The notes below the pieces were generated by a model. It made no database searches. It had not been told where the DNA came from and saw only the letters and a program-made list of their open reading frames with translations. The position numbers were made by a program, and so were the translations under genes. From an uncultured Bacteroidales bacterium (lineage in GTDB: Bacteria > Bacteroidota > Bacteroidia > Bacteroidales > UBA932), in assembly GCA_947630665.1 (NCBI GenBank), contig CANRID010000025.1:1-37939 (forward strand): a stretch of 37,939 nucleotides of DNA, written 5' to 3'. How positions within the stretch are numbered: the first letter of the stretch is position 1; every line of letters begins with the position of its first letter. Below are positions 3,390-34,203 of the stretch, in pieces.

Positions 3390-4685
3390 TTACCGCAGAT
3401 CTATAAATTTTATACTTTTCCGACTCATTGCCGGCATCTGGATCTTCGATATTTCTTCGACCGATTCGAAAACTATATCCGGCGCTACGCGCACTTTGGA
3501 GCGGAATATATCTTTTATATGCTTCACAAATTCATCCGAACGGTTCACGCTGCCTATTTTAATCTGGAGCTGGTCGGTCCCCAAGGAGTTCGTATATACC
3601 TCTACTACATAGTTGGTAACATCCGGTATATTATCCAGTATATCGAACAGAATCGGCGGATATAATGTCGTCCCCTTGAATTTTATCATTTGTCCCTTGC
3701 GCCCTATCACCGAACTCAAACGTGCGCTGTTCCGCCCGCATTTGCATGGAGTGCTGTATCGGATGCAGATATCCCCCGTCTTGAATCGCAGCAAAGGCAT
3801 CCCCTCCACACCCAAGGTCGTTATGGTTACCTCGCCGCTTTCTCCGTCGGGAACGGGATTATTATTTTCATCCAGCATCTCGACAATTATCAAATCGCAC
3901 GGGATATGCCCGCCGGCATGTTCGGAACATTCCGTAAAAGAGGTCTGCATCTCGGTAGAGGCATACGTGGAGTAAAGTTCAATATTCGGCCATCTTTCCA
4001 TGATTTTTTGGCCGAGCGTAGTCATCTCTCCATCCGGCTTGCGGAGTGCCTCGCCAATACAGATGGCGCGTCGCAGTCCGCTTGCATTACAGTCTATTCC
4101 GTTCTTTTCCGCAAACTCGACCATTTTTATCAAAAACGACGGTACGACCATACAAGCCGTCGATTTCACTCGGAAAATGGTATCCCATTGTAGTTCGGGT
4201 ATTCCGTTGCCGACCCTTACCACTCCGCAGCCCAGTTCGCGGGCGCCGAGGAAATATGCCAAACCGGCCATGAACCGGCGGTCGATTGTCGTCATAAGCT
4301 GCATTATATCCTCTTTCGTGCAACCTGCCATAATGAAAGAACTGGCCTCATTGTAGGCAAGACGCTGCAAGTCATTCTCTGTCAAAGCAAAGGTAACCGG
4401 ATCGCCCAATGTCCCCGAGGTGGTGACAAAGTCAATCATTTCGGATTTGGGGACACAGAAAAAATCCTCGTTATATTGCTGCAAGTCCTGTTTTGTCGTT
4501 ACCGGAACATTGACCAGATCGCCGATCGAGCGGATATTGCCGATGTCGATGCGGTTCTCATGGAACATCCGGCGGTAGAAAGGCGAGTTCATTGCGAGAT
4601 AATGCAAGGTCTCCGACAAACGTGCATTCTGAAAATCAGATATTTCAGAGGGATTCTTATAGTGCAGCTCTCTATTTCTTATCAT
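3390..4685 (-). CDS. Adenylate-forming ligase, phenylacetate-CoA ligase-like
   Basis: A 431-residue ANL-superfamily enzyme, about the length of PaaK-type ligases. Visible motifs are the phosphate loop TSGTLGDP (89-96), YSTYASTEMQ (A5), RFKTGDI (A7) and the hinge IGRKGQMIKFKGTTLYPP. It would activate an aromatic or phenylpropanoid acid as the acyl-AMP and load it onto CoA or an acyl carrier protein. Given the ammonia-lyase in the same operon, 4-coumarate is the likely substrate, playing the part of the starter-activating ligase in aryl polyene or flexirubin clusters. It is the last gene of the operon, overlaps the previous gene by 14 bases and has no evident terminator in the 12 bases before the convergent gene. 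Ligase class is sure; substrate is inferred. Confidence 0.88.
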   Translation of the reverse strand: MIRNRELHYKNPSEISDFQNARLSETLHYLAMNSPFYRRMFHENRIDIGNIRSIGDLVNVPVTTKQDLQQYNEDFFCVPKSEMIDFVTTSGTLGDPVTFALTENDLQRLAYNEASSFIMAGCTKEDIMQLMTTIDRRFMAGLAYFLGARELGCGVVRVGNGIPELQWDTIFRVKSTACMVVPSFLIKMVEFAEKNGIDCNASGLRRAICIGEALRKPDGEMTTLGQKIMERWPNIELYSTYASTEMQTSFTECSEHAGGHIPCDLIIVEMLDENNNPVPDGESGEVTITTLGVEGMPLLRFKTGDICIRYSTPCKCGRNSARLSSVIGRKGQMIKFKGTTLYPPILFDILDNIPDVTNYVVEVYTNSLGTDQLQIKIGSVNRSDEFVKHIKDIFRSKVRVAPDIVFESVEEISKIQMPAMSRKSIKFIDLR

Positions 4686-6345
4686 GGCGCTTTAATTTTT
4701 TTTCAATGTTTATTTTAGTTGACCGGTGAGGTATTTCCTTTGTCAATGCCAGCTCCCAATATGTTTTAGCCGGCCCGACATGATTTTGTGACAGTTCATA
4801 ATCACCAGCCATATCGTACACCAAATAGTAGTTGGGATTATTATCGATATACGTTTCCAGAAAATCGGAAGGCAATACAATATGTTGCTCTATGGCCTGC
4901 CGCAATTCCGCAGTCTGCCGTCTGAATGACTCCACCCTGACCAAGTCATGCTGCAGGAAAAGAGTGTCGGCAGGTATGCGTTCACTCTCTATTGCATTAG
5001 AGGAAATGGCGGCATCTTCGGAGGCGAATATTTCATTAAGGTCATAGCATAAAAAAGCACCGCACTGCCATGGCGACGTGGAAACCCACATCTTCAGTTT
5101 CTCGGGTTCAAATATCACAGAATGATGTGCGATGAACTGGTTAATGCTTTTCTCGTTAGTCAGGCCAATATCTTCGTTCTGCAGGCCGTATCTGTCGCGC
5201 AGGATACCGACACTTTTGGTTGCATCCAACGGTATATTGGTTTCAATCAGTTCGGACAGCCTGTCAAACCTGTATTTACTATCGGAAGAAGCAATATTTT
5301 CTACATTGTATTTGTTATCTGCAAAGTGTCCCGACTGGTAATGGTTAGTGCAAATGATATGGTTGGAGCCGGTCGTATAGAGCTGGATATCGTCCGGAGT
5401 CTTTTCAATTATAACGGCCCGCCCGTCATGCGCCGATGCGGCGAGCAAGGATTCTGAAACGAATGTCCGGCATGTGCGGGCAATATCCATTGCCTCGTCA
5501 ATATTTTTAGCATACTGCAAGATATGACGCACAAGCAATGAAATGGGCATTGCGGTAGAGGTCGGGATGGCGCCTTTCGCGGCGTTGATAGTTATTGCCA
5601 GACCGCATTCGTTCATTCCGGAAACCACCCCCATCATGCCGGGCCATGTTACCGATGCGTATTTATACCCTGAAGCCGGGTTTACAAACAGGACTATCTT
5701 GTTTTTGGCAAAATCATCGCCCACATAAAAATCGAAATTCCGGCCCAGTATCAGATCTCCGTCCGCACTTTCCGCGCCCCAGGCGGCAAAAGAGCTGCAA
5801 CCCACCAACATATATTCCTGCATCGCGTGTCCGATGTCGTGGGCGGCGTGATAATTCAGCTGCCGGGCATACGGAGTTCCATAGGCATCGTACTCTTTGC
5901 TGCAAGACAGGGACATGGCATATATCTCCTCTAAATATTCGGCCGGTATATGCTGCACCATATTACGGTTAAAAATGGCTATGAACTTATGCAGAATACT
6001 TATATATCGTTCCGATGGAATCATCTGACGAATCCGATCTACGAATACCCGCTCCTGATTCTGCAGAAGATCTTTTGACATCAGGCCCAATACGGCACCG
6101 CGCTCGGATGCCGGACCGGAAATTCTTGCCTCCCATAATCCGTCGGGATTAAGAAGAAGATAATTGCCACCGCAAATTCGCAGCGAATCGCTCCACCGGG
6201 TCAATGGATAATCGGATAATTCAACCGAAACATCGGGTGCCTTGAATTTGTGTAACGCCGAATAATAGAGGCCTGTCGTTACGGATAACAACAGGACGAC
6301 TATAGCTGTCAGGCAAAGAAGGAATATTTTTAAAAATCTACGCAT
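4672..6345 (-). CDS. Membrane-anchored C45-type Ntn hydrolase/acyltransferase
   Basis: A 557-residue protein with one N-terminal hydrophobic helix (about 5-29), either a signal anchor or signal peptide, so the rest should face the periplasm. The core resembles the C45 family (acyl-CoA:6-aminopenicillanic acid acyltransferase-like Ntn hydrolases). VGCSSFAAWG places the probable nucleophile at Cys183, followed by GDLILGRNFDF (197-206) and GMMGVVSGMNECGLAI. Classical members free an N-terminal Cys by self-cleavage; if that happens here, about 182 residues would form the first chain. Enzymes of this type occur in Bacteroidetes pigment clusters, where a role in acyl transfer or ester cleavage is plausible but unproven to me. 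Overlaps neighbours by 14 and 8 bases. Confidence 0.75.
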   Translation of the reverse strand: MRRFLKIFLLCLTAIVVLLLSVTTGLYYSALHKFKAPDVSVELSDYPLTRWSDSLRICGGNYLLLNPDGLWEARISGPASERGAVLGLMSKDLLQNQERVFVDRIRQMIPSERYISILHKFIAIFNRNMVQHIPAEYLEEIYAMSLSCSKEYDAYGTPYARQLNYHAAHDIGHAMQEYMLVGCSSFAAWGAESADGDLILGRNFDFYVGDDFAKNKIVLFVNPASGYKYASVTWPGMMGVVSGMNECGLAITINAAKGAIPTSTAMPISLLVRHILQYAKNIDEAMDIARTCRTFVSESLLAASAHDGRAVIIEKTPDDIQLYTTGSNHIICTNHYQSGHFADNKYNVENIASSDSKYRFDRLSELIETNIPLDATKSVGILRDRYGLQNEDIGLTNEKSINQFIAHHSVIFEPEKLKMWVSTSPWQCGAFLCYDLNEIFASEDAAISSNAIESERIPADTLFLQHDLVRVESFRRQTAELRQAIEQHIVLPSDFLETYIDNNPNYYLVYDMAGDYELSQNHVGPAKTYWELALTKEIPHRSTKINIEKKLKRHDKK

Positions 6346-7843
6346 TGCTAATCTTTTTTGTCAAGTATTCTGTCCCGACAAGTTCTCCACAGGTTACTAA
6401 GGCAGATATGGAAGTTCCCAAACAGCCATGGACGTTTATGCTCTGCCCCGTCAAATAAAGATTCGGGATTTTCATCTTTACCGGCAGATAAGCGGCAAGG
6501 GGATTATGGTAGTCCTTTAATACGCCATACGCGCTTCCGTCGGGAGTTCCCGTATAATCTCTGTATGTAAGGGGAGTTGCCGTATATACCTTTTCGATAT
6601 ATGGACGAAGCTCCGGATGGAACCGGCAAATATAATCTATTATTGTCTCACTATAGTGCAATTTGAACGCTTCATACTCTTCTCCACGCTTTCCCGTCTG
6701 TGTGTCCCGCCACCGCTCCACCCGCCGTTTATCCATTGGGATCAGGATTGTAATTACCTCGGTATAACCGCTGTCGATACTGCCCGGTTGTGAAATAACT
6801 ACCATAAAAGGCAGATCGCAGCCTTTATATCGCCCCTTGTCGATAGACCACACATCATCGGTATTGTAATACCAGCGGTTGCTGTTGATATACGGTACGG
6901 TTCCGGGGCGCAGCAACAGGTAGGTCGTAAAAAAGCCGTATGTATTCGACAAAGAATTCATCCTTGTATGGAATGATTTTCTTATAACGGAATTATCGCA
7001 TAGCAAAGCCATGGTAGAGGCGGGATGCAGCGACGATATCACATTTTTCGCATAGATGCGTTCCCCTCCCTTGAGTTCGACATAATCTGCATACGACCCG
7101 CTGATATGGATTTGAATGACCTCCGAGGATCTTCTAATCTCGCCATGGTTGCTGCAGATCCGTTCCGCCAATCTGTCGGCCAGCTGTTGCGAGCCGTCCA
7201 CGAAACAACTGCATCCTTCGATATTGGAGCCGGTGATTATGCCATGTTCATATAGGGAAGTCGTATTCCGGTTGCCGGCATACAAAGCATTCGTACCGGC
7301 GAGCACATTCCTTAAAACAGGGTCTTTTACGCAAGCGCCAATCGTTTCGGCAGCGGAAAGCGACATATATTTCATACATTCGTTGAAATCCGCGATTTTG
7401 CCCTGTTTCAACATTTGCGGCGAAATCAACCGACTGATATCCTGCAATATCCGGCAATATCGTTTAAGGCCTTCCTGTTCATCGGGGAAATCGGCTGCTA
7501 AAGTATCTACAAACCGCTCGTAACCCATCGCGTGCCGATATTCCTTTCCATTCGACAAATATATGCGTTCAAATCCGGATTCATCCAACGCGTGCAGCCG
7601 CAGAGAATCAAATATATCCAGATACTTCAAATACAAGTGCATAATCTGGCCTTCGCGCATGCTTCCCACATAGTGCATCCCCGTGTCGAGTATGCGGCCG
7701 TCGCGATGAAACGACTGCAGGCAACCCCCGACCGTGTGGTGGCGTTCAAGCACGAGGACCTTCATCCCCTCTTTACTTAAAATTGCGCCGCAGAACAGTC
7801 CGCCCAATCCGCCTCCGATAATGACGATATCATATCTCTCCAT
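6338..7843 (-). CDS. FAD-dependent oxidoreductase, phytoene desaturase/CrtI-like
   Basis: A 501-residue flavoprotein. The N-terminus has the dinucleotide fold (DIVIIGGGLGGLFCG, about 5-19), then LERHHTVGG, and the C-terminus has the closing FAD motif (NLYLTGQSINVHGCLG...). Overall layout and length match the phytoene desaturase/retinol saturase-like family. In a carotenoid pathway these enzymes desaturate or isomerise polyenes; here no carotenoid synthase is present, so it more likely modifies or isomerises the polyene or the aryl head. It overlaps the C45-type gene by 8 bases and the exporter gene by 14 bases. Family assignment is firm; reaction is open. Confidence 0.82.
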   Translation of the reverse strand: MERYDIVIIGGGLGGLFCGAILSKEGMKVLVLERHHTVGGCLQSFHRDGRILDTGMHYVGSMREGQIMHLYLKYLDIFDSLRLHALDESGFERIYLSNGKEYRHAMGYERFVDTLAADFPDEQEGLKRYCRILQDISRLISPQMLKQGKIADFNECMKYMSLSAAETIGACVKDPVLRNVLAGTNALYAGNRNTTSLYEHGIITGSNIEGCSCFVDGSQQLADRLAERICSNHGEIRRSSEVIQIHISGSYADYVELKGGERIYAKNVISSLHPASTMALLCDNSVIRKSFHTRMNSLSNTYGFFTTYLLLRPGTVPYINSNRWYYNTDDVWSIDKGRYKGCDLPFMVVISQPGSIDSGYTEVITILIPMDKRRVERWRDTQTGKRGEEYEAFKLHYSETIIDYICRFHPELRPYIEKVYTATPLTYRDYTGTPDGSAYGVLKDYHNPLAAYLPVKMKIPNLYLTGQSINVHGCLGTSISALVTCGELVGTEYLTKKISNA

Positions 7844-10800
7844 AAAGTTGCTTTTTACGAAATATGTACAAGGTTTCGGAACTGTCCTTATCGCATCTGC
7901 GTATTTGCAGACTAAGACTGCTGGCCTTCGCGAACTCCTTCATTTTCATCGAATCTATAAACGACAGGTTTCCGGTCGTTTTATTGAATTTAATAATTTT
8001 CGTTGACCATTTTTCCGTATTTTCAATTTTGGCATGCCTCTGCGAATCAGAAGCGTCGCCGTCCCGAACCAGTATCATCCCGTTTTCGTTGAGACGGGAT
8101 GCCGCTTGGGAAAGTACCGAGAGCTGCGTCCGGGAATCTACATAATGCAGACTGTCATTGAATATGAACGCATCCGCAAACGGCAATGCCACTTCCCGCA
8201 TATCCGCATTTTCAAAGTGTATCCGGCCATTGCACAGAAAACTGTTTTTCGCCAATTCTATCTTATCGGGATCATAGTCGATTCCCAATATTTTACGTTC
8301 CGGGGCGAGAGTCCCCAACATAAAACACATTTGTCCGTATCCGCATCCGACATCCACGACCGAGGCATTGCGCGGAATAAGCCTGTCCCACAAGTCATAA
8401 TAACCGTCTATCCGGCACTTCACCCTCATATACCATTCGAGTACAGGGCCTTTATAGATATAATTCTTAATCAGCGCATCCCTGAAATACGCGTTGTCCG
8501 TCCGGCCGTATATATCGTTGATTCTCGCATACTCCTTAGCGAACCATTGTCTGCAATATTTTGATTTTTCCCGATACGTGTCTCCGAATGAGCTGCCGGC
8601 AGAGCTGAAACGTTTCATTATATTGGCAACGATCAGCCCTCTTTTTATATGGAAAGGCTGGCTTTTAGAAGATATCTGCCCAGTGCCATACAACACGATG
8701 GGGATTATGTCGAGATTGAATTTTTCGGCTAAATAGAATCCCCCCTTATGAAACCTCCGGACAGTACAATCCGCCGAGCGTGTGCCTTCAGGGAAAATCA
8801 CGATGGAATATCCCGCCTCGATCTGTTTTTGCAATGAACCGGCAAGGGCGTCATACCCGTCATCGATATTCTGGAAGCCGGCATAACGAACTATCCGTCC
8901 GAAGAATGGAGAATTCCAAACCCAATGGTTGGTAACCATCACGATTTTGGGCGTGGTAGATAACAACAACAAAATATCGATAAACGATTGATGGTTCGCT
9001 ATGATGAGTGAAGGCCTTTCAAATGTCTCTCCATATGGATTGTTCCGTATTGTTTTGACTGTCAGCATTGTATTAAGGAACAGCCGCGTAAAGGAATATA
9101 TGATATCATGGATATGGTCTTTTTTCTTCTGCCGCTGGATGGGAAGTATGGCGAATATGGCCATACACAACTGTATGGCTACGCAGCCGACAAAGAAATA
9201 CAAGAAACAATATAGGGTATTGAGAAGCGACAAAAAGGTATAAGGGAACCCGCCTTTCCGCGTCTGCGAACTGATAAGCAGCCGGAACAGGAACGGCTGG
9301 ACGGTATAGGCAACTATGACAACCACGCATAATCCGAGTACCGAGATGAATGCGATGGATTTAAGAGCCGGATGTTTAGCGAAGATCATTACTCCCATCC
9401 CGACAATGGCAGTAAAGGCGGAGAAGAAAATCGCGGTTTTATGAGCGCCCAAAAGTTTTTGTCCGCATTTGTACTCCTGGAGCAGGCCGTCCATTATGAA
9501 TATGCTGAAATCGTCTCCGATACCGAAGATGAATGTCGCCAGGATGATGTTGACCACATTGAACCTGATATCAAAAACAGCCATCAGTCCCAGAATAATC
9601 ACCCAGCTGATACACATCGGCAGGAATGTCAGCAGCGTAAGTTCCAATCGGCCATACGAGATCAGCAGGGCGACAAAAACGATCAAAGACGATATGAGCA
9701 GGATATAATTGAAATCATTTACCGTACTCTCGAGCATGGACGAGGAGAACCAGGCACGGTCAACAACCACCGTTCCGGGAATTTCCGAGACGGCCGCATA
9801 GACTTCCCCTTTCGCGTCTTCATCGAGCAGAATCCTGCTAATCAGCATTTTTGAAGAATCGCTTACCTCAATCCACTCCCGCAGGGCAGGAACATCGCCT
9901 ATCTCGTTTTGGGTATAGTCGCATAGGGAAAACTCTTTTCCCAGCAATTCTTCAAACCGCGAAAAGGCATCTTCCCGGAAGCCTGCCGATCGGGCATATT
10001 TGTTTACCGACTCTATTGTCGCTTCGCGGTTTTTATCCCAAAAGGCATTCCATTTTGCAATGCGCATACGCTGCTCGTCCGGTGAAATGACAAAATTGTC
10101 GAGCAATACACAGTCTTTGATTTTCGCCTCGCTTTTATAAGTTTCCAATGTTTTGCCGAGCGTCTCGTATCGCTCCGTCAGATCGGTGAGATTATCAGCC
10201 GACGATACCAAATAGATGCTCTTTGCCGCATCGCCCGTCGTCTCTCCTACCCTCGTGGCCGCCTGTTGGAGACCGGCAGGCATATAGTTGAGACTCGACA
10301 TATCGGCATCGAAACGCACATCGTTGTAGAAAAACAGACAGACGACCGTCAATACGCCGAACAGCAAAACAATCCATTTGTTATCTTCATACGAATAGGC
10401 ATTTCCGCGCTCAATGAAATCCAACAGGCGGCTATGCTTTTTATTGTCGAACTTCCCGATAAAATGAGGTAGAAAGACAAGACAGCAGAATGTCGTTCCG
10501 ATCAGGACAAAAACGCTGAACAGGCCTATATCATGCAACAGTGCGGACGAGGTGAACATCAATGCGGCAAAGGCCCCGATGGTGGTAAGGCAGCCGATAG
10601 TCAACGGAGATGCCAGATCGGCTATTACCTGACGAGGGTCATTCGTGTGATTGAGGTGAGAGATAAAATGGATCGAATAACTCAGAGCCACCCCGAGGAC
10701 TACGGCACCCGCACCGATGGCGATTGCCGATATGCTCCCCTGAATCACCCATGCCGCTGCCAGTGCGAACAAAACGCCGAATGCCGGAGGAACGATGATA

Positions 10801-11669: not shown

Positions 11670-12843
11670 ATTTTTTCCTGTTACATACTATCATTATAAG
11701 CCAAGACACGCAGCAAACGACAAGCCCCGATACCACAGCCAGGGCCAGACTGCCTGTAATGTATTGCGTCAATGACATTCCGATGTTTTCAATAGAAATG
11801 GAATCGAGCGTAAACGGATTGTCGATTCCCAGAATCGCCGCACCGAATACGACACTGCCGTACAGTATGAACGGAATCATGGGCGGAATGCTTATGTTCG
11901 AAAATACCAACGCGACCACCTTGTTCAAACGCATGAAATGGGCCGTTACGGCAGCAAATATCATTTGATAGCCCCATAGCGGTATGATACCGCAGAATAT
12001 GCCCCATCCCATTGCGCACGCCATCCGGAAATTACTGTCGGGACTATGAAGGACCTGCTTGTCAAAGAAATTACGGATATTTTCTTTCGTCATAGCCCGC
12101 ATAAATCTCCATGGGTAGTAAAAAAGCAGGGCGCATATCACCAGAACAGAGTTCAACAGGCTAATCCGTGTAAAATCCGTTAACGGCCTGAAATGCGATA
12201 CACGTTCCTCCACAGGGGGGTAATATACCTTCACGGGAACATTCTCGACCTGTATCCCTTTCCAGGCTGCACGGACAATGATCTCCACTTCAAAATCGTA
12301 GTGTCTGGTGACAAACCGCATATCGCGCAATTGGCGCAACGGATAGAGCCGATAGCCGGATTGTGTGTCCGCCAGTGTCTGTCCGGTCTCCACCTTGTAC
12401 CAGAAATTCGAGAACTTGTTTGCGAATGTGTTTTTCGACGGCATGTTGTCAGCCGTCAGATTCCTGGCACCTATAAGGAGCGAATGGGGCGCCTGTTCTA
12501 TGCGGTCGATGAATGCAGGAATATCATCCGCAAAATGCTGTCCGTCCGCATCGATTGTAATGGCATAATCATACCCTGTTTGGGCCGCTGTTTTCAAAGC
12601 CTGTTTGAGAGCGTACCCCTTACCGCGATTCTTCTTGTATGTGATTATCCGGATATTGGAAAAAGATGAAAGGATATTGGCCGTATCGTCTGTCGATCCG
12701 TCATTTACCACTAAAATATTATCCGAATACCCCGCGACATCCGATAGTACCCGCGCAATGGTCCCGGCGTTGTTGTAGGTCGGAATAACGACAACGCATT
12801 TCAAGGTATTTACGCGCTCGCGGTATTTGTCGGGAAGGGTCAT
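11662..12843 (-). CDS. Family 2 glycosyltransferase fused to a DUF2062 membrane domain
   Basis: A 393-residue protein. The N-terminal half is a GT-A family 2 glycosyltransferase: VVVIPTYNNAGTI (17-29), VVNDGSTDDT (45-54) and IDADGQH (97-103, the DXD-type metal site). Residues about 225-245 form a membrane segment. Residues about 265-390 match DUF2062, with GWGIFCGIIPLWGYQ and several hydrophobic helices. It probably adds a sugar, or a dolichyl-phosphate-type activated sugar, to a lipid acceptor at the cytoplasmic face of the inner membrane. In this operon it could glycosylate the pigment lipid anchor. Acceptor and sugar cannot be read from the sequence. Overlaps by 8 and 4 bases. Confidence 0.85.
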   Translation of the reverse strand: MTLPDKYRERVNTLKCVVVIPTYNNAGTIARVLSDVAGYSDNILVVNDGSTDDTANILSSFSNIRIITYKKNRGKGYALKQALKTAAQTGYDYAITIDADGQHFADDIPAFIDRIEQAPHSLLIGARNLTADNMPSKNTFANKFSNFWYKVETGQTLADTQSGYRLYPLRQLRDMRFVTRHYDFEVEIIVRAAWKGIQVENVPVKVYYPPVEERVSHFRPLTDFTRISLLNSVLVICALLFYYPWRFMRAMTKENIRNFFDKQVLHSPDSNFRMACAMGWGIFCGIIPLWGYQMIFAAVTAHFMRLNKVVALVFSNISIPPMIPFILYGSVVFGAAILGIDNPFTLDSISIENIGMSLTQYITGSLALAVVSGLVVCCVSWLIMIVCNRKKYE

Positions 12844-16482: not shown

Positions 16483-16483
16483 C

Positions 16484-16738: not shown

Positions 16739-16740
16739 AG

Positions 16741-18453: not shown

Positions 18454-18893
18454 TTCCTTTTCCACTCTTCGAAAAACGACGGATTGTTCAGACACATATT
18501 CCCCTCCGAATCGATGAATACCTGAACCGAACTTCCGCGAACAGCGATCTCGCCATCCGTATTTCTGCGGATTTCATATTCGAAACAGAGTTTCGCGGCC
18601 TCGGTTTCGATATAACGTATTTCTACGGTCGCCGTCTCATTCATCGTCAACGGACGCAGATATTGCAGCTGCAAATCCACAATGGGAGCCGTATATCCGT
18701 TGGCATAAAAATCCATATATCCGATTCCAGGATACATAAGGCCAAAAGCCTCGCGTCCGTCTTCAAAATAACGGACATACTCGCCATGCCATACGATCTG
18801 CATCGAGTCCACTTCGCTGAAACGGACCTTTATCTCTGTCTTTGCAGTCAGAGCCGCCTTGTTTTTTCCTATGTCCCTCCTACGTCTGATCAT
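18438..18893 (-). CDS. Acyl-CoA/acyl-ACP thioesterase, 4HBT hotdog family
   Basis: A 151-residue protein from the ATG at 18893, chosen because it gives a 4-base ATGA overlap with the preceding gene; the frame is open to 18950 but that part only shadows the neighbour. The sequence RFSEVDSMQIVWHGEYVRYFEDGREAFG is the 4-hydroxybenzoyl-CoA thioesterase signature region, with Asp in the position of the usual catalytic acid. It would hydrolyse a thioester, either releasing the finished acyl chain or editing blocked carrier proteins. Thioesterases of this family are normal in aryl polyene clusters. Confidence 0.85.
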   Translation of the reverse strand: MIRRRRDIGKNKAALTAKTEIKVRFSEVDSMQIVWHGEYVRYFEDGREAFGLMYPGIGYMDFYANGYTAPIVDLQLQYLRPLTMNETATVEIRYIETEAAKLCFEYEIRRNTDGEIAVRGSSVQVFIDSEGNMCLNNPSFFEEWKRKWLKR

Positions 18894-19300
18894 TGCTTCA
18901 AATAGATTTTCATCCGGCAAGTGGCAATACAATTGCCATCGACACAACAATGCGCTTCGATAAGCGATATATTGAACACCTCCTGTACGATCTCGATTAT
19001 AGTTTCAATCGTATCATCCACTTTGGGATGGGCAAGCAGGTGAAAGTCATTGACAGACCCGATATATCCCAACGGAACCTCCTTACGGGCCTCGCGGCAT
19101 ATATATCCGATCCGGGCGGCAGCCGATTGTGCAATATGCTCTATCACACCGCATTCGTCCATCACGCCTTTCTCGACAAATATATTGTCGGCACGCACAG
19201 TGAGTCGTGAGCGCGACACATTTTGTCCCTCCATTCCAAGGAACTCGTCAACCATTACAATAGGCGCCCGCTGCGGTATGAGTTCGGATATTTTATACAT
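18890..19300 (-). CDS. Hotdog-fold ApeP-like dehydratase partner with Glu but no His
   Basis: A 136-residue protein recognised as a hotdog dehydratase-like protein from LIPQRAPIVMVDEF at the N-terminus (FabZ-like opening) and GVIEHIAQSAA at the central helix. Glu54 aligns with the FabZ catalytic Glu, but the residue 14 positions before it, where FabZ has His, is Ile40. Alone it should be inactive or poor as a dehydratase; with the 117-residue protein at 12840-13193 it could form a heterodimer with one complete site. ApeI and ApeP dehydratases of aryl polyene systems are known to act as a pair. Overlaps neighbours by 4 and 8 bases. Confidence 0.75.
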   Translation of the reverse strand: MYKISELIPQRAPIVMVDEFLGMEGQNVSRSRLTVRADNIFVEKGVMDECGVIEHIAQSAAARIGYICREARKEVPLGYIGSVNDFHLLAHPKVDDTIETIIEIVQEVFNISLIEAHCCVDGNCIATCRMKIYLKQ

Positions 19301-20393
19301 TTCTCTTTTTGCAAACCATTATAGAATGCCCCAGTCCCAAACCGTCTGCCATTTTCTCCACCTCCAAACCGGCAGTCTCCACACAGCGGCGCATATCGTC
19401 CGAATGGTACATCTTACTGTTTCCGTTGGCCATAGCCGTAAAATACAGGCTTGTAAGGGTCAGGCAATAAGCGGCTGTCTCGAACCGTTGACGGTCCCAG
19501 AATGTCTCCATTATATAGAGCCGCGTATCATTGTCCATAACGTTGGCGGCACGACGGCAAATACCGGTAACCTCCTGTTCGGAAAAACAATCGAGGAACT
19601 GGCTCATCCAAATGACATCGAAATGCGCCGCCGGAAATGCCGCATGCTCATCCAGCAGATTACATCCATAGCCGTCAATCCGTTCCGCCCCCGGCTTGCC
19701 TGCTGTCTGTTTCCTCATCATTTCAAGTTGCTGCGGCAAATCCATGACGGTTACCCGCACCTCCTTGTCATAGGCCACGCACCGCATTGCCCAACGTCCG
19801 GTATTTCCCCCGACATCCAGCAACCGCCCGACCTTGCGGCCTCCATCGAACACTATTTTCAACGCAGCCTCGAATGCCCCGTCGGAATAGAAATGGTCGA
19901 AACCGAACCAGCTCTTCTGCACCTGTTCGGGCAGACTCGAAAGCCCTTCATAGATTGTCGGCCACGGGCCGAATACTTTCAGACCTTCGGGCTTGCCATT
20001 TATCAGAGACTCCTCTAAACGGAACAGGCCAAGGTAGTTGACATCGTGATTGAAATTCAGATTGGCGCGGGCCATATCATCGTTGAGAAGAAACCATCCC
20101 GCTTTCGACAACGTGTAGCTATCCCCCTCTACCAACACCGTACCGATCGACAGCGAAGCCTCCAACAGCACCTGTGCGGCATATTCGGACAAGTTAGCGT
20201 GACGGGCTATTTCGGTTTGCGTCGCACCTTCTCTGTGTTCGGACAGATATTCCAGAATGCCGAATTTCAGCATCAGCCGAGAAACCTGGAACACTACGGG
20301 CGCAAAGGCAATCTCCTGTGCCCTGCGCTGGGCTTCGAGGGCGCTCTGCTGTTCGTGCGAATATATTTTCTCAAGCGATGGGGTCAATTTCAT
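19293..20393 (-). CDS. SAM-dependent O-methyltransferase-like protein
   Basis: A 366-residue protein with the architecture of plant/bacterial small-molecule O-methyltransferases (acetylserotonin O-methyltransferase-like): an N-terminal winged-helix dimerisation region (about 40-110, GILEYLSEHREGATQTEIA) and a C-terminal Rossmann domain with LLDVGGNTGRW (motif I), VTVMDLPQQLE and DVIWMSQFLDCF. A substrate such as a phenolic hydroxyl on the aryl head, or a carbon of the ring, is plausible by cluster context. It starts 11 bases after the acyltransferase gene and overlaps the next gene by 8 bases. Confidence 0.82.
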   Translation of the reverse strand: MKLTPSLEKIYSHEQQSALEAQRRAQEIAFAPVVFQVSRLMLKFGILEYLSEHREGATQTEIARHANLSEYAAQVLLEASLSIGTVLVEGDSYTLSKAGWFLLNDDMARANLNFNHDVNYLGLFRLEESLINGKPEGLKVFGPWPTIYEGLSSLPEQVQKSWFGFDHFYSDGAFEAALKIVFDGGRKVGRLLDVGGNTGRWAMRCVAYDKEVRVTVMDLPQQLEMMRKQTAGKPGAERIDGYGCNLLDEHAAFPAAHFDVIWMSQFLDCFSEQEVTGICRRAANVMDNDTRLYIMETFWDRQRFETAAYCLTLTSLYFTAMANGNSKMYHSDDMRRCVETAGLEVEKMADGLGLGHSIMVCKKRNV

Positions 20394-20404
20394 AACATAT
20401 GTTT

Positions 20405-21292
20405 TTATTCGTTCCAGAAATTGTAAAAATTAAACCATTGCCTCGGATATCTTTCCAGCAAATGCTCCAACGAGGCAGCGTACTGTTCAAGTAACGCGAC
20501 AGGTTTGTCGTGTCCGAGGGCAGGTTCCGAAAAAATAAATCTATACGTCCGGTTCTTCTCCCTCATTGCATAATGGAAGACGACCGGAACCCGGCATTTG
20601 GCAGCTATCTTGAACGGACCCGACGGCATAAGTGCTTCGGCCCCCATAAACCGTGTCCGGAAAGTCTCTTTTTCATTCATGTACCTGTCCCCGTTAAAAC
20701 ATATATATTCGCCATTGTCGAGAGCTTCCTTTATCTGCAGGATAAGAGCCAAAGGATCCTGATTGACTGGTATTATCTTGAAGTTGTTTTCATCTTCGCT
20801 GTTATCCTCAATAACCCGCTTTATCCGTTTATGCTCATTGTCCAGCATTACGATATTTATCTTCTTACCGTACTTGCCAAAAAATACCGACCCGGTTTCC
20901 CAACATCCGACATGAGCTCCAATCATAACCACACCTTGCCGTCCATCGATAATCTCAAGAAACCGCTCATAATTATCGAATTGGAAATTATAGCGTTCAA
21001 CAAGACCTGCTTTCAGGGCCATACGGTCAATCAGGGTCTGGCCAAAAATATAGTAATGTCTGTACAGCTCTGTAACAGACTTTAACCGGCCAAGCCTCCG
21101 TTTGCCGCGATTATATTTCCATATAGCGGCAGTAGCCTTGGGAGCAAACGGGATGAAATAAATAACGATAAAGGCCAGAAAGCCATATGCGAATCCAAGC
21201 CCCAGCCATTTTATGGAATAGACAAAAAACAGATAGCCGAAACGGCCGCCCCTCGATTTCCCATTCCATCGCCTATCGTTATTATTACTCAT
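20405..21292 (-). CDS. LpxL/HtrB-like lysophospholipid acyltransferase
   Basis: A 295-residue protein with an N-terminal hydrophobic segment (about 26-50) and an LpxL/HtrB-type acyltransferase domain. AHVGCWE gives the HX4E pair (His127, Glu132), followed by CFNGDRYMNE and MPSGPFKIA. Members transfer acyl chains from ACP to lipid acceptors at the inner membrane. Here it may esterify the aryl polyene to a glycerol- or sugar-lipid anchor. It is the second acyltransferase of the cluster, distinct in motif (HX4E) from the HX4D domain fused to the exporter. Confidence 0.85.
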   Translation of the reverse strand: MSNNNDRRWNGKSRGGRFGYLFFVYSIKWLGLGFAYGFLAFIVIYFIPFAPKATAAIWKYNRGKRRLGRLKSVTELYRHYYIFGQTLIDRMALKAGLVERYNFQFDNYERFLEIIDGRQGVVMIGAHVGCWETGSVFFGKYGKKINIVMLDNEHKRIKRVIEDNSEDENNFKIIPVNQDPLALILQIKEALDNGEYICFNGDRYMNEKETFRTRFMGAEALMPSGPFKIAAKCRVPVVFHYAMREKNRTYRFIFSEPALGHDKPVALLEQYAASLEHLLERYPRQWFNFYNFWNE

Positions 21293-21530
21293 TCAACTTG
21301 CGCCATAACATTTCATAGAAGTCGGCAAACGTTGCAACGCCGACAAAATCGGGGCCTTTAAGGGTTATCCCGAAATTTTGTTCGACCAGAACCACGACAT
21401 CCACAAGGTCAAGGCTATCCAATCCGAGCGTATCTTTCAAAGAGGCATCAGGCACTATATCAGACTCCTCTATCTCGAACTCTTCAGCCAATATGACCTT
21501 TGTCTTTTCAATCAATTCTTCTCTTGTCAT
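21285..21530 (-). CDS. Acyl carrier protein
   Basis: An 81-residue carrier protein, LKDTLGLDSLDLVD, with Ser39 as the phosphopantetheine site, and a typical acidic helix I (VILAEEFEIEESDIVPD). It overlaps the ketosynthase gene upstream by 23 bases and the acyltransferase gene downstream by 8 bases. It is the second carrier protein of the operon and the closer one to the starter and ketoreductase genes, so it may receive the aryl starter; that is inference. Confidence 0.92.
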   Translation of the reverse strand: MTREELIEKTKVILAEEFEIEESDIVPDASLKDTLGLDSLDLVDVVVLVEQNFGITLKGPDFVGVATFADFYEMLWRKLNE

Positions 21531-22758
21531 CTTCCCGTTTATGTTTTTTTATAATTAGCGTTGCATTTGTTCCCCCGAATCCAAAGGAATTACTCATATA
21601 CATATCGAATGCCTTATCTACCCGTTCACGAGGGATATTCAGCATAGCCGATGCCTCGTCAGGTTCTTCAAAATTAAGATTAGGCGCGATAAAGTCGTTA
21701 AGCATCATCAGCGTTGAATAAACTATTTCGCTTGCACCTGCCATCCACATTTCATGACCGGTATATGATTTTGTCGAAGTAACCAATGGCCGGCATTTGC
21801 CGAAAACCTCGGCAATGGCGCGGGCTTCATTCTTGTCACCCACCGGTGTAGAGGTTGCATGGGCATTCACATAGGAAATATCTCCGATATCGACCCCCGC
21901 ATCGCGTACAGCCATCAGAAGCGATCTTTTCGGGCCATCGACATTCGGCACGGAAATATGCTCGCCGTTGGAGGAAAACCCATATCCGATGACTTCGGCC
22001 AAAATTGCCGCCCCTCGTTTCAATGCGGACTCATAGCTTTCGAGAATTATGGTAGCCGCGCCCCCGCTGGGCACAAGCCCGTCACGGTTCTTGTCAAAAG
22101 GCCTCGATGCTTTCGCGGGTTCATCCTCCCGTGTCGAGAATGCACTCAGCGCATCAAAATTTCCCATCGAGTATTTGTTGACCTCTTCAGCGCCGCCGCA
22201 AATGACACACTCCTGCAAGCCCTGTTTAATCAGCATATATCCTAATCCGATGGCGTGCGCGCCACTGGCACAGGCTCCGGAAACGGTAAAATTGATTCCC
22301 CGCAAATTGAAAATGGTGGACAGATTCATCGTCAGCGTCGAATTCATCGACTGGAATATGTTTCCCGACCCGACAAGCACCGTATTCTTCTTTTCGCGGA
22401 TAATGTCGGCCCCCGTTACCACCGCCTCGGCACTGCTGTCGTTTCCGTAGAGAATACCCACCTCATGGGCCGCCAGAAAACCGGCATCGATACCGGCCTG
22501 TTCCAAAGCCTCTGCAGTTGCGACATAGGCATAATGGCCGTGTTCAGGGAGACACAACCTTTGACGTCGGTCGAGTTTTCCCTTCAAATCCGGTTTCTCC
22601 AGTATGCCGGTAAGTGCAGAACGATACCCCATAAGCTTTCTCTGCGGGTCGATGCCTATACCGGACCTCCCTTCATAGAGAGACTTGCAAACCTCGTCCT
22701 TATTCTTCCCGATGCAGGAATATATACCCATTCCCGTTATAACGACACGGTTTCCCAT
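21508..22758 (-). CDS. Beta-ketoacyl-ACP synthase (KAS I/II type)
   Basis: A 416-residue complete ketosynthase: Cys163 in TVSGACASGAHAIG, His residues in NAHATSTPVGDKNE and STKSYTGHEMWMAG, and the C-terminal NSFGFGGTNATLI. It begins 2 bases after the ketoreductase gene and overlaps the carrier-protein gene by 23 bases. It could catalyse the first condensations or the repeated extension with malonyl-ACP. A basic tail (KKHKREDDKRR) occupies the overlap with the carrier protein gene. Confidence 0.92.
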   Translation of the reverse strand: MGNRVVITGMGIYSCIGKNKDEVCKSLYEGRSGIGIDPQRKLMGYRSALTGILEKPDLKGKLDRRQRLCLPEHGHYAYVATAEALEQAGIDAGFLAAHEVGILYGNDSSAEAVVTGADIIREKKNTVLVGSGNIFQSMNSTLTMNLSTIFNLRGINFTVSGACASGAHAIGLGYMLIKQGLQECVICGGAEEVNKYSMGNFDALSAFSTREDEPAKASRPFDKNRDGLVPSGGAATIILESYESALKRGAAILAEVIGYGFSSNGEHISVPNVDGPKRSLLMAVRDAGVDIGDISYVNAHATSTPVGDKNEARAIAEVFGKCRPLVTSTKSYTGHEMWMAGASEIVYSTLMMLNDFIAPNLNFEEPDEASAMLNIPRERVDKAFDMYMSNSFGFGGTNATLIIKKHKREDDKRRID

Positions 22759-22760
22759 AG

Positions 22761-23498
22761 CTAAACGTAAACTCCTCCGTTAATTGATATTACTTCGCCC
22801 GTAATGTAACCGGCAGCATCCGACACAAGAAAAGCGGCCAGATCAGCCACCTCTTCCGGTGTGCCGAACCGTCCGACGGGTATCATCTTCTTCAACTCTG
22901 CCTCGTCCAGATCCGCCGTCATATCACTTTTTATAAATCCGGGCGCGATAGCATTTACCGTAACTTTTTTCTTGGCCACTTCCTGAGCCAAAGCTTTTGT
23001 CGCGGCAATCACGCCTCCCTTTGCCGCCGAATAGTTAACCTGTCCGGGCATACCTTTAATTCCCGACAGCGAGACGATGTTTATTATGCGTCCCCATTTC
23101 GCCACAAGCATATTTTTCAGCAGCGGCTGCGTTACATTATAAAATCCGTCCAACGATACCGACAACACTTTGTGCCAATCATCTTCCGGCATCCACATCA
23201 ACAAATTATCCTTTCTGATACCGGCATTGTTCACCAACACCGAAATATAATCTCCCTCGTGCCGCCGGTGCCATTCTGCCAATGCCGCCTGCACCGCCAC
23301 GCCCTCCGCCACATCGAATTGCAGCAGCTCTCCGTCACTGCCCGTCTCACGAATCCGTGCCAGTGTATTTTCCGCCTCAGTGCGGTTAGACGCATAATTG
23401 ACGATGATCCGGTATCCGTCTTTTGCAAGCCTTACCGCTATGGCACGGCCTATGCCACGGCTTGCACCTGTAACGAGGGCATATCTGCTCGCATTCAT
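22761..23498 (-). CDS. 3-oxoacyl-ACP reductase (FabG-like SDR)
   Basis: About 245 residues, a classical short-chain dehydrogenase/reductase: TGASRGIG cofactor loop, NNAG, and the catalytic Ser-Tyr-Lys set in SLSGIKG and NYSAAKGG. It reduces the 3-keto group after each condensation using NAD(P)H. The ATG at 23498 gives a 4-base ATGA overlap with the ammonia-lyase stop codon; an ATG two codons earlier (23504) is also possible. As the only ketoreductase in the operon it should serve every extension cycle. Confidence 0.9.
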   Translation of the reverse strand: MNASRYALVTGASRGIGRAIAVRLAKDGYRIIVNYASNRTEAENTLARIRETGSDGELLQFDVAEGVAVQAALAEWHRRHEGDYISVLVNNAGIRKDNLLMWMPEDDWHKVLSVSLDGFYNVTQPLLKNMLVAKWGRIINIVSLSGIKGMPGQVNYSAAKGGVIAATKALAQEVAKKKVTVNAIAPGFIKSDMTADLDEAELKKMIPVGRFGTPEEVADLAAFLVSDAAGYITGEVISINGGVYV

Positions 23499-25033
23499 CG
23501 GCATTCTCCTTTCAACAGTTTTTCGATTCGTTCAATCTCCCTGTATTTGGGAGTATCATCCCTAAATGCCGGCACAATCGCGCGGATATCATCATACAGC
23601 TTGCGGGTTGCCGGAGCGAGCTTGTCCGCCATCTTAAGGCAATCGACGGCCTGCACCAGCGCCATCATCAATATCGAGATAACCTGAAAACCGTTCTCAA
23701 TCACGTGTTTGCAGATGAGCGCCGAGTTGGTGCCCATACTTACAATATCCTGATTGTCGTTGTTGTTCGGAATAGAGTGAACATACATCGGGTTCGACAG
23801 CGTCTGACTTTCGGCCGTCGTGGAAGTCGCCGTAAACTGCGAGGCCTGCAAACCGTAGTTCAGCCCCAATACTCCCATATTCACAAAAGGCGGCAAGATG
23901 CCGTTAATCCGGTCATGGAACAGATAGTTCATCTGCCGTTCCGCCAGCATTGTCATTTTGGTTACCGCTATTTTCAGTTTGTCCATCTCGAAAGAAACGT
24001 AATCGCCGTGAAAATTACCGCCGTGAATGACCGTCTTGCCCACGGGATCGACAATAGGATTGTCATCTGCCGAATGGAACTCATCGAGCAACACCTTCAT
24101 AGCATTCCGAATCTCATCCGACACAGGTCCCAGTATCTGCGGTACGCAGCGTAACGAATAGTAAGGCTGTACCTTGTGTTCGAACACCTCGTCATCGGTG
24201 TGCTGCCGGTACAACTCTTCTTCACGGTTGCGCATCGCCTTACTTCCTGCTGCGATTTCGCGCATCATAGCCGCTACGCTCCGCTGTCCGTCATGCCGTT
24301 TCAGTCCGTTCAATGTTTCCGACATGAAATCGTCGTATGACGCCGCTATTTCGTTCATCATAACGGAAGATTTCACAGCATAGCCGAATAATCTGTCCGC
24401 CAGCACGAGATTGACAAGACCGATACCTGTCATAACAGCCGTACCGTTCGTAACCGCCAAGCCTTCACGAATGTACATCCGTAGAGGTTGCAGGCCGAGT
24501 TTGGCGAACACCTTGCCTGTCTCGCATCGTTCCCCATTGTAAAACACTTCTCCTTCGCCGATTAGCGCCAATGCCAGATGTGCCAGCTGTACGAGATCTC
24601 CGCTGGCGCCGACGCTGCCGTGTTCCGGAATTACAGGATATATCCCGTAGTTCAGGAAATCGACAAGCAGGTTACATACCTGAGGATTAACGCCAGAGCG
24701 TGCTTGCAGAAACGTCATCAGGCGGGCCAGCATAGCGGCTCTTACATATATGACCGGCAACGGATTGCCTGCACCTGTCGAATGGCTGCGAATTATATTA
24801 TATTGCAGTTGTTTCAGGTGCGAGTCATTGATGCGCCACTGGGCCATCGGTCCAAACCCGGTATTGATTCCATATATGATCTTATCCTGCGAAAATTCTT
24901 TCAGAAAAAGATAACACTCGTTGACGGATTCAATATCCGCTTCTGCAAGTTCTATATGATAATTGGAAAATATTATTTTCTCTATCGCATCTAATGAAAG
25001 ATCCTTCGAAACTTTACAAATAGTTTTTCTCAT
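23495..25033 (-). CDS. Aromatic amino acid ammonia-lyase, probably tyrosine ammonia-lyase
   Basis: A 512-residue lyase of the HAL/PAL/TAL family. The MIO cofactor forms from Ala143-Ser144-Gly145 (GSVGASGDLVQLAHLA); Tyr54 lies in IYGINTGFG; NNNDNQDIVSMG is also conserved. The selectivity segment reads IIRSHSTGAG (81-89). From memory the F. johnsoniae tyrosine ammonia-lyase has the same RSHS setting and long stretches almost identical to this protein. It would convert tyrosine to 4-coumarate, the aryl starter. No histidine-utilisation gene (urocanase, imidazolonepropionase, formimidoyl hydrolase) is nearby, which argues against histidine ammonia-lyase. Second gene of the operon, 22 bases after the 188-residue protein gene. 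Confidence 0.85.
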   Translation of the reverse strand: MRKTICKVSKDLSLDAIEKIIFSNYHIELAEADIESVNECYLFLKEFSQDKIIYGINTGFGPMAQWRINDSHLKQLQYNIIRSHSTGAGNPLPVIYVRAAMLARLMTFLQARSGVNPQVCNLLVDFLNYGIYPVIPEHGSVGASGDLVQLAHLALALIGEGEVFYNGERCETGKVFAKLGLQPLRMYIREGLAVTNGTAVMTGIGLVNLVLADRLFGYAVKSSVMMNEIAASYDDFMSETLNGLKRHDGQRSVAAMMREIAAGSKAMRNREEELYRQHTDDEVFEHKVQPYYSLRCVPQILGPVSDEIRNAMKVLLDEFHSADDNPIVDPVGKTVIHGGNFHGDYVSFEMDKLKIAVTKMTMLAERQMNYLFHDRINGILPPFVNMGVLGLNYGLQASQFTATSTTAESQTLSNPMYVHSIPNNNDNQDIVSMGTNSALICKHVIENGFQVISILMMALVQAVDCLKMADKLAPATRKLYDDIRAIVPAFRDDTPKYREIERIEKLLKGECR

Positions 25034-25055
25034 AAAGCAGCCTGTTCGAAAATCG

Positions 25056-25622
25056 TCAGGAGAACAGTTTCTTGTCTTTTATCATCTCATAGACCGGATG
25101 TATCCAAAAATTACGCAGGCCAAAGCCGCCCGCTTTTTTCGTAACCCGTTTGGTATATACTATATTCCGTGTCGCTATGTCGAAGAATACAATATCGAAT
25201 GTCCCTTTCGCGGCTCTCTTGTCGAGCATACGGGCTATCAGGATCATGCCTACCCCCTCTTTGTGAGGCAATGAATATGCCGAAACCAAATCCTCTGCCT
25301 TCACATCCGAAATTTCCCTCTCGCGCATCTCGGATCTGTCCATCTTCTGAGTCTTCTCCGTTATCATTGTAACATCCGTTTCTACAGGACATTTAACCAA
25401 TTGCGAAAAATCGTATTTGGCAGATTCCTTTACAAGCAGGTCGTTGATACCCATAAACGCACCGACAAAAAGATCATCATCTTCCTGGGCACCGGCAACC
25501 CTCACTTCGGAAAAATCAATGCCATAAAAATGCACCAGTGTAGTATTCAAATCCAACTTTTGCCCGAACACAGATAAAGATGAGGCAAAAAATACAAGTA
25601 ATACGGTTATTGTCTTTTTCAT
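25056..25622 (-). CDS. Secreted hypothetical protein at the head of the pigment operon
   Basis: A 188-residue protein with a clear signal peptide (about 1-20, cut after SVFG before QKLD), so periplasmic or outer-membrane associated. The C-terminal GGFGLRNFWIHPVYEMIK and the regular beta-like segments (GMILIARMLDK, TFDIVFFDIATRNIVY) suggest a compact domain conserved in Bacteroidales, but I do not recognise a named family. It lies 22 bases before the ammonia-lyase gene in the same direction and is probably the first intact gene of the operon. No -7 box was found in the 70 bases before it, so it is likely transcribed from the promoter near 25910. Confidence 0.75.
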   Translation of the reverse strand: MKKTITVLLVFFASSLSVFGQKLDLNTTLVHFYGIDFSEVRVAGAQEDDDLFVGAFMGINDLLVKESAKYDFSQLVKCPVETDVTMITEKTQKMDRSEMREREISDVKAEDLVSAYSLPHKEGVGMILIARMLDKRAAKGTFDIVFFDIATRNIVYTKRVTKKAGGFGLRNFWIHPVYEMIKDKKLFS

Positions 25623-34180: not shown

Positions 34181-34203
34181 GGCACAACTTTATTCTTTAA
34201 TGA

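What the first reader, a model, noticed from the sequence alone, without database searches (positions are those of the whole stretch)
3390..25622. Aryl-polyene-type pigment operon with its own coumarate supply and no dialkylresorcinol branch
The operon holds ammonia-lyase, ligase, two carrier proteins, ketosynthases, reductase, dehydratases, acyltransferases, methyltransferases, exporter and LolA-like carrier. Families and order fit aryl polyene/flexirubin systems (established knowledge). No DarB-like KAS III gene is present, so the product is probably an aryl polyene lipid or glycolipid rather than a flexirubin diester (inference). The glycosyltransferase plus deacetylase suggest a sugar-containing anchor.
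Basis: partly seen in the sequence, partly recalled or inferred. Interest (0 to 1): 0.75.

Follow-up and report, generated by a model that had tools for sequence, protein, structure and literature searches.

The report
Aryl polyene pigment operon without resorcinol
This is a complete set of genes by which a gut bacterium most likely makes a yellow membrane pigment from tyrosine, of the flexirubin type but without the resorcinol half; such clusters are common in its relatives, so it is a good but fairly ordinary example.

Summary
The operon is real: 21 tightly packed genes at 3390-25622, minus strand, of the flexirubin flx type. Four proteins pass NCBI's flexirubin cut-offs (FlxA tyrosine ammonia-lyase, FlxB, FlxJ, FlxY coumarate ligase). 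DarB is absent from the held genome (93% complete); a DarA search gave only chance. That is usual: of sampled genomes with FlxA and FlxY, 54 of 90 (order) and 54 of 63 (family) lack DarB. Phocaeicola vulgatus ATCC 8482, complete, has counterparts of all 21 genes and no DarB. 14 of 21 proteins match E. coli aryl polyene (Ape) proteins, including anchoring enzymes: ApeJ is matched in two halves, ApeD by a domain of the exporter. Best reading: a tyrosine-started aryl polyene joined to a membrane lipid, not to dialkylresorcinol. A LolB gene is missing here and in the 13 of 23 named clusters most like it. New member of a known kind; product undetermined.

The parts
25056..25622 (-). First gene of the operon: small exported protein, 188 aa, unknown; relatives lie at the FlxY end of several other flx clusters
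   Evidence: No Pfam or NCBIfam match at E 0.001; 16 related ORFs in fetched loci; 22 bases from the next gene
23495..25033 (-). FlxA, tyrosine ammonia-lyase (tyrosine to 4-coumarate)
   Evidence: NF053541 841.4 bits, cut-off 700; ASGDL with the MIO tripeptide ASG at 143-145
22761..23504 (-). FlxB ketoreductase (ApeQ-like)
   Evidence: NF053542 410.4, cut-off 340; 50% identical to ApeQ
21508..22758 (-). Ketosynthase, best Ape match ApeR (initiation)
   Evidence: PF00109/PF02801; 35% to ApeR
21285..21530 (-). Acyl carrier protein (ApeF-like)
   Evidence: PF00550; GLDS site; ApeF best match
20405..21292 (-). LpxL-like acyltransferase, matches the acyltransferase half of ApeJ
   Evidence: PF03279; 28% over 234 aa to ApeJ, 1.7e-24
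19293..20393 (-). FlxJ methyltransferase (ApeB-like), probably methylates the ring
   Evidence: NF053543 610.9, cut-off 560; 45% to ApeB
18890..19300 (-). Dehydratase, FabZ-like (takes the place of ApeP by inference)
   Evidence: NCBIfam FabZ models below cut-off, no Pfam match; no blastp match to an Ape protein
18438..18950 (-). Thioesterase (ApeK-like); true start probably downstream of the listed TTG
   Evidence: PF13279; 34% to ApeK
16741..18495 (-). Ketosynthase with about 200-aa C-terminal extension; best Ape match ApeO
   Evidence: PF00109/PF02801; Cys, His and His motifs found; 29% to ApeO
16484..16738 (-). Acyl carrier protein (ApeE-like)
   Evidence: NF006617 92.8, cut-off 70; 52% to ApeE
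15307..16482 (-). Ketosynthase, best Ape match ApeO (elongation)
   Evidence: PF00109/PF02801; 34% to ApeO
14489..15307 (-). Short ketosynthase-like protein, possible chain length factor (ApeC family)
   Evidence: PF13723, also the family of ApeC; weak match to ApeC, E 0.002
13806..14504 (-). Polysaccharide deacetylase
   Evidence: PF01522; no Ape match
13190..13816 (-). LolA-like periplasmic carrier (ApeL-like)
   Evidence: PF03548; NF053544 113.9 against cut-off 125; ApeL matched by blastp 1.2e-05 and by family profile 1.2e-20
12840..13193 (-). Dehydratase (ApeI-like)
   Evidence: PF22818 28.0 bits, just under cut-off 28.5; ApeI match 2.7e-08
11662..12843 (-). GT2 glycosyltransferase with DUF2062 tail; matches the glycosyltransferase half of ApeJ
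   Evidence: PF00535 and PF09835; 34% over 232 aa to ApeJ, 2.4e-36
7830..11669 (-). Fused MMPL exporter (ApeM-like), PlsC-type acyltransferase (ApeD-like) and methyltransferase
   Evidence: PF03176, PF01553, PF13847; ApeM 1.4e-09 and ApeD 3.3e-13
6338..7843 (-). CrtI/carotenoid isomerase-like flavoprotein, role unknown
   Evidence: PF01593; TIGR02733/TIGR02730 below cut-off
4672..6345 (-). C45 autoproteolytic acyltransferase/hydrolase, role unknown
   Evidence: PF03417; NF040521 232.4, cut-off 85
3390..4685 (-). FlxY, 4-coumarate ligase, last gene of the operon
   Evidence: NF053551 693.4, cut-off 520

Best explanation
A complete flx-type aryl polyene operon that has no dialkylresorcinol arm. 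FlxA deaminates tyrosine to 4-coumarate and FlxY activates it. The type II machinery (ApeR-, ApeO- and ApeC-like ketosynthases, FlxB, two dehydratases, two carrier proteins) extends it to an aryl polyene acid, and FlxJ methylates the ring. An ApeJ-like pair (glycosyltransferase 11662-12843 and LpxL-like acyltransferase 20405-21292) and an ApeD-like domain join the polyene to a membrane lipid, probably a glycolipid. The MMPL part and the LolA-like carrier move it to the outer membrane, where it acts as an antioxidant pigment. Gene families, order and the lack of a DarB match are shown. The FlxA and FlxY reactions are taken from the characterised C. pinensis enzymes. The rest is inferred from family membership, and the anchor's chemistry is unknown.
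For: FlxA, FlxB, FlxJ and FlxY over curated cut-offs. Purified C. pinensis FlxA and FlxY make 4-coumarate and coumaroyl-CoA (PMC3992019). Same gene order, apart from single gains, losses and the moved first gene, as in G362, G145, P. vulgatus and P. faecium. No DarB match over 30 bits and no credible DarA in the genome. 14 of 21 proteins match E. coli Ape proteins at E 0.01 or better, ApeJ in two halves plus ApeD, ApeM, ApeL and ApeK. E. coli apeD and apeJ deletions give late intermediates that look unattached (PMC8253772, passages).
Against: The genome is 93% complete in 60 contigs, so a missed dar operon is possible. DarH and DarG were not searched in it (cap spent). Clusters with DarB carry the same anchor genes, so these genes do not prove a glycolipid. 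The LolA-like protein scores below the flexirubin cut-off and LolB is missing, so export is incomplete on paper. 7 of 21 proteins have no blastp match in the E. coli Ape set. No expression or chemical data were seen for this organism or its Bacteroidales relatives.
Confidence: 0.75

Rival explanations
1. A normal flexirubin cluster: the dialkylresorcinol operon is elsewhere in the genome, in the unassembled 7%.
For: In some relatives darB lies far from flx or on another contig (G170, G241, G242; G618). DarB is strongly associated with FlxY (40 of 44 DarB genomes in the order sample carry FlxY).
Against: Neither DarB nor a credible DarA in the held genome. The other three genomes of the genus with FlxA also lack DarB, one of them a single contig, though its flx genes are arranged differently. 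P. vulgatus, a complete genome with this kind of cluster, lacks DarB. 54 of 63 FlxA+FlxY genomes of the family sample lack it.
Confidence: 0.1
2. The operon makes a free or differently esterified polyene acid; the C45 enzyme (4672-6345), not the ApeJ/ApeD-like enzymes, joins it to an unknown alcohol or amine.
For: A C45 acyltransferase/hydrolase lies beside FlxY in G198 and G415 (with DarB) and in G362, P. vulgatus, P. faecium and Alistipes P5061 (without), and has no E. coli Ape match. The F. johnsoniae aryl polyene cluster also lists a 6-aminopenicillanic acid acyltransferase (PMC5932025, passage).
Against: ApeJ- and ApeD-like enzymes are also present, and their E. coli counterparts are proposed to act in anchoring. 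C45 enzymes can be hydrolases.
Confidence: 0.25
3. A decaying or silent cluster.
For: The LolB gene is missing, and the small exported gene sits at the other end than in P. vulgatus, P. faecium, Alistipes P5061 and G145.
Against: All 21 reading frames are uninterrupted and 15 of 20 neighbouring pairs overlap. Active-site motifs looked for in the lyase, three ketosynthases and two carrier proteins are present (one ketosynthase histidine read by eye). Loss of LolB is shared by 13 related clusters, so it is a stable feature.
Confidence: 0.1

Closest known systems
Flexirubin cluster flxA-flxY of Chitinophaga pinensis (PMC3992019)
   Same: FlxA, FlxB, FlxJ, FlxY families over NCBI cut-offs; the paper's text also lists ketosynthases, dehydratases, deacetylase, LolA, glycosyltransferase and exporter. 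The gene order of C. pinensis itself was not compared here.
   Different: No DarB and no credible DarA in the genome; no LolB2
Polyene cluster of Phocaeicola (Bacteroides) vulgatus ATCC 8482; BVU_1014 is noted in print as part of an aryl polyene cluster (PMC5850320, passage; locus tag not matched to coordinates here)
   Same: All 21 window genes have a counterpart, 20 of them in the same order; no DarB
   Different: Has LolB; the small exported gene is at the FlxY end; at least two unrelated ORFs inserted; 33-74% identical where measured
E. coli aryl polyene cluster apeA-apeR
   Same: 14 of 21 proteins match, including chain-building, anchoring and export enzymes
   Different: No match for ammonia-lyase, FlxY, C45, CrtI-like, deacetylase, one dehydratase and the small exported protein; starts from 4-hydroxybenzoate through ApeH (PMC8253772)
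Flexirubin-type clusters of the same family with dar genes (G198, G415)
   Same: Same flx order
   Different: A LolA-like gene, DarA candidate, DarB, DarG- and DarH-type and ABC genes follow FlxY; a B12 radical SAM enzyme stands in for FlxJ; a LolB gene is present

Membership tests
Flexirubin biosynthesis (flx plus dar) | FlxA tyrosine ammonia-lyase | tested here: met
   841.4 bits, cut-off 700
Flexirubin biosynthesis (flx plus dar) | FlxY coumarate ligase | tested here: met
   693.4 bits, cut-off 520
Flexirubin biosynthesis (flx plus dar) | FlxB reductase and FlxJ methyltransferase | tested here: met
   410.4/340 and 610.9/560
Flexirubin biosynthesis (flx plus dar) | LolA2 carrier of flexirubin type | tested here: inconclusive
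   113.9 bits, under the cut-off of 125
Flexirubin biosynthesis (flx plus dar) | LolB2 receptor | tested here: not met
   No match in the genome at E 0.001; none in the window with a family profile
Flexirubin biosynthesis (flx plus dar) | DarB ketosynthase | tested here: not met
   Best 29.6 bits against 550 in the genome
Flexirubin biosynthesis (flx plus dar) | DarA condensing enzyme | tested here: not met
   Query: DarA candidate of G198 (name from its place beside DarB and from recall; no family model matched it); only a 14.5-bit match, E 0.0127, with two stops
Flexirubin biosynthesis (flx plus dar) | DarG and DarH elsewhere in the genome | not tested
Flexirubin biosynthesis (flx plus dar) | Polyene-dialkylresorcinol ester product | not testable with these tools
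   Needs extraction and mass spectrometry
Aryl polyene (Ape) biosynthesis | Type II chain-building set: KS, KS with chain length factor, KR, DH pair, two ACPs | tested here: met
   Matches to ApeR, O, Q, I, E, F; ApeC weak at E 0.002; ApeP not matched by blastp, a FabZ-like protein is present instead
Aryl polyene (Ape) biosynthesis | Anchoring enzymes ApeD, ApeJ and thioesterase ApeK | tested here: met
Aryl polyene (Ape) biosynthesis | ApeH-type starter ligase | tested here: not met
   No ApeH match; FlxY instead
Aryl polyene (Ape) biosynthesis | LolB-like ApeN (DUF3261) | tested here: not met
   No match to ApeN among the 21 proteins; no DUF3261 among the 30 window ORFs scanned
Aryl polyene (Ape) biosynthesis | Outer-membrane polyene lipid | not testable with these tools
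   Needs chemistry

The most novel reading that the evidence does not exclude
In gut Bacteroidales most flx operons make an ApeJ/ApeD-anchored polyene glycolipid from tyrosine and not flexirubin; the dialkylresorcinol arm is a detachable module, and one widespread sublineage, this window among it, delivers the pigment to the outer membrane with a LolA-like carrier but no LolB partner.
Probability: 0.45. Interest if true: 0.45.

Novelty: new member of a known kind. Interest (0 to 1): 0.3.

Why it matters
If right, many gut Bacteroidales coat their outer membrane with a tyrosine-derived polyene lipid that cluster labels can blur with flexirubin. It would place the flexirubin resorcinol ester as an add-on to a lipid-anchoring pathway shared with E. 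coli aryl polyenes. The question can be tested at once in a culturable, sequenced gut species that carries the same kind of cluster. The specific window adds little that is surprising.

Tried and rejected
Lack of darB as an assembly gap: disfavoured by P. vulgatus (complete genome), a single-contig genome of the same genus (G630; its flx genes are arranged differently) and the tallies, but not excluded for this genome.

Glycosyltransferase and deacetylase as marks of a resorcinol-free product: rejected, both are in clusters with dar genes (PMC3992019).

The small exported protein 25056-25622 as a marker or substitute for the dar module: rejected. In the FlxY-side flanks fetched (some cut short by contig ends), relatives occur in 5 of 18 genomes without DarB and 6 of 16 with DarB (a 17th, G138, had only 42 bases and is not counted); in none of the 25 FlxA-side flanks. 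Its AlphaFold model is useless (pLDDT 40, two sequences), so no fold search was made.

FlxA alone as a measure of clusters: rejected. 25 of 80 FlxA loci have at most 2 of 5 core genes beside it (some loci are short) and G316 and G610 have FlxA away from any cluster; I therefore counted FlxA with FlxY.

The FlxA as a misread histidine lyase: rejected, the genome has a separate HutH (584.4 bits, cut-off 539.15) at 33% identity.

Bacteroides-type promoter motif (recalled consensus): no match before the operon, two elsewhere, and 31 of 100 shuffles have as many.

Limits: DarB was counted at E 1e-60, which is loose: 34 of 44 (order) and 1 of 12 (family) pass the curated cut-off, and 2 of 14 control genomes ring, none over it, so DarB counts may be too high. 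The genomes of the samples are related by descent and the Fisher tests are not corrected for that. The output was cut, so the FlxA end of the G394 listing and the start of the G393 listing were not seen.
Full report
What is there. The window is G000:C25:1-37939 of a 2.24-Mb genome in 60 contigs, 93% complete. From 25622 down to 3390 there are 21 genes on the minus strand; 15 of the 20 neighbouring pairs overlap and the others lie 1-22 bases apart. The next genes on both sides look unrelated: a Sel1-repeat protein on the plus strand ends at 3377, and a gene without a Pfam match ends 368 bases away. Four pass NCBI's curated cut-offs for flexirubin proteins: FlxA 841.4 (700), FlxB 410.4 (340), FlxJ 610.9 (560), FlxY 693.4 (520). 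The LolA-like protein scores 113.9 against 125 for LolA2 of flexirubin clusters, so that label is not met.

The coumarate supply. In Chitinophaga pinensis purified FlxA turns tyrosine into 4-coumarate, about 1000-fold better than phenylalanine, and purified FlxY makes coumaroyl-CoA (PMC3992019, parts 1 and 2 of 5 of the text read). The window's FlxA has the ASG tripeptide at 143-145 and an RSHS stretch at 82-85; that paper reports that FlxA resembles histidine lyases at motif 1. A second lyase in the genome is a histidine lyase by model (HutH 584.4 bits, cut-off 539.15), 33% identical. FlxA's role is thus well placed but not tested for this protein.

No dialkylresorcinol arm. The DarB model finds only 29.6 and 27.8 bits in the genome, both in one 336-aa frame on another contig, probably FabH (cut-off 550). 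A DarA candidate from G198, a genome of the same family, finds only a 14.5-bit stretch with two stop codons. That protein was called DarA by its place beside DarB and by recall: no family model named it.

How usual that is. Samples of genomes (asked for at 90% completeness or more) were searched with FlxA, DarB and FlxY, and the printed rows were intersected. Order, 392 genomes: FlxA 93, FlxY 99, both 90, DarB 44; of the 90, 36 have DarB and 54 do not; 40 of the 44 DarB genomes have FlxY. Family, 250 genomes: FlxA 66, FlxY 80, both 63, DarB 12; of the 63, 9 have DarB and 54 do not, and 7 of these 9 belong to one genus. DarB was counted at E 1e-60, a loose limit: 34 of 44 and 1 of 12 pass the curated cut-off, and two of 14 control genomes ring (Caulobacter vibrioides, Bacteroides ihuae), none over it. 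FlxA and FlxY ring in 1 of 14 controls each, B. ihuae. In the window's own genus 4 of 13 genomes have FlxA and none of the 4 has DarB; one (G630) is a single contig, but its FlxA and FlxY lie far apart and its cluster differs from this one. So DarB mostly goes with flx, but flx more often goes without DarB. Among 23 genomes reached through named FlxA loci (23 of the 80 loci kept), 2 have DarB at E 1e-20, neither over the cut-off. P. vulgatus ATCC 8482 (complete sequence) has counterparts of all 21 genes, 20 in the same order, and no DarB. The literature agrees: BVU_1014 of B. vulgatus is named as part of an aryl polyene cluster (PMC5850320, one passage), and polyene clusters with and without resorcinol genes are described across bacteria (PMC3949708, passages). 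I saw no structure for a Bacteroidales product in the listings of searches or in the passages read; preprints and most subscription papers are not held.

What it works like. The 21 products were compared by blastp (E 0.01) with the 18 E. coli CFT073 ape products (the ape letters were put on the genes from the table in PMC8253772). 14 of 21 match; FlxY, C45, the CrtI-like protein, the deacetylase, the FabZ-like protein 18890-19300, FlxA and the small exported protein do not. FlxB matches ApeQ (50%), FlxJ ApeB (45%); ketosynthase 21508-22758 matches ApeR best, 15307-16482 and 16741-18495 both match ApeO best, and the short ketosynthase-like protein matches ApeC weakly. ApeJ is one E. coli protein with a glycosyltransferase half and an acyltransferase half; here the first half matches the gene at 11662-12843 (2.4e-36) and the second the LpxL-like gene at 20405-21292 (1.7e-24). 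ApeD matches the acyltransferase domain of the large exporter and ApeM its transporter domain. E. coli apeD and apeJ mutants give late intermediates thought to be unattached polyene acids, and ApeD/ApeJ are proposed to attach the polyene to an anchor (PMC8253772, passages). I therefore infer lipid attachment by the same route. The structure of an aryl polyene lipid is in a preprint cited there (reference 32), which I did not see. The argument has a limit: clusters with dar genes carry the same enzymes, so flexirubin producers may also make such a lipid, or the enzymes may do something else there.

Differences within the kind. (1) LolB: G198, G145, G362, G415 and P. vulgatus have a LolB-type gene next to LolA in the flx cluster; the window has none. 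Within the genus, G627 has one, and G629 and G630 show none in the stretches fetched. Of 23 named clusters cut around the glycosyltransferase, the 13 whose glycosyltransferase is most like the window's (60-70%; labelled Alistipes, Bacteroidales, Candidatus Gallipaludibacter, P. faecium and B. mediterraneensis) all lack it, with LolA and the dehydratase seen in all 13; of the other 10 (52-54%), 8 have it and 2 were not covered (P. vulgatus has it in L140; B. neonati not seen). (2) The small exported protein lies at the FlxY end in P. vulgatus, P. faecium, Alistipes P5061 and G145 but opens the operon here; in B. neonati it lies upstream of FlxA. (3) Ring methylation: of 80 FlxA loci, 43 have FlxJ, 6 have a relative of the G198 B12 radical SAM protein (TIGR04072, 388.7, cut-off 360), none has both, and 31 have neither within the stretch.

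Verdict. The thing is a well-preserved member of a common class. Its value lies in offering a testable question in P. vulgatus: what is the polyene joined to when no resorcinol is made?

Noticed in passing
L100:5041-6420 and L022, L029, L043, L059, L062, L074: A B12-binding radical SAM protein (TIGR04072 over cut-off in G198) stands in the place of the FlxJ methyltransferase; in 80 FlxA loci the two never occur together (43 FlxJ, 6 radical SAM, 0 both, 31 neither).
   Followed up: partly
L038, L040, L042, L045-L049 and others; G316:C16 and G610:C41: FlxA-type lyase genes with at most 2 of 5 core flx genes near them (25 of 80 loci): the lyase alone does not prove a pigment cluster.
   Followed up: partly
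window 25056-25622 and 16 related ORFs (e.g. L141:8613-9188, L104:2292-2864): A family of small exported proteins tied to flx clusters, without Pfam or NCBIfam match for the window's copy, with a KAGGFGLRNFW stretch shared by the window and B. neonati copies.
   Followed up: partly
L146:9336-17423 (G626, same genus): A dialkylresorcinol-type operon (matches to the DarA candidate, DarB, DarG and DarH of G198, plus LolA, LolB, dehydratases and an exporter) in a genome in which FlxA and FlxY were not found.
   Followed up: no
L134-L139 (G630, G627, G629): Same-genus genomes carry differently arranged flx-like clusters with FlxA only 63-65% identical to the window's, less than several clusters of other genera, which hints at exchange or differential loss.
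   Followed up: no
window 28272-30047: MnmE seems to carry a low-complexity insertion of roughly 100 residues before its C-terminus (seen by eye).
   Followed up: no
window 30731-37650: HipA-like kinase, FRG-domain protein and two AAA_14/DUF4143 ATPases in a stretch whose genes have lower G+C (35-47%), possibly mobile or defence-related.
   Followed up: no
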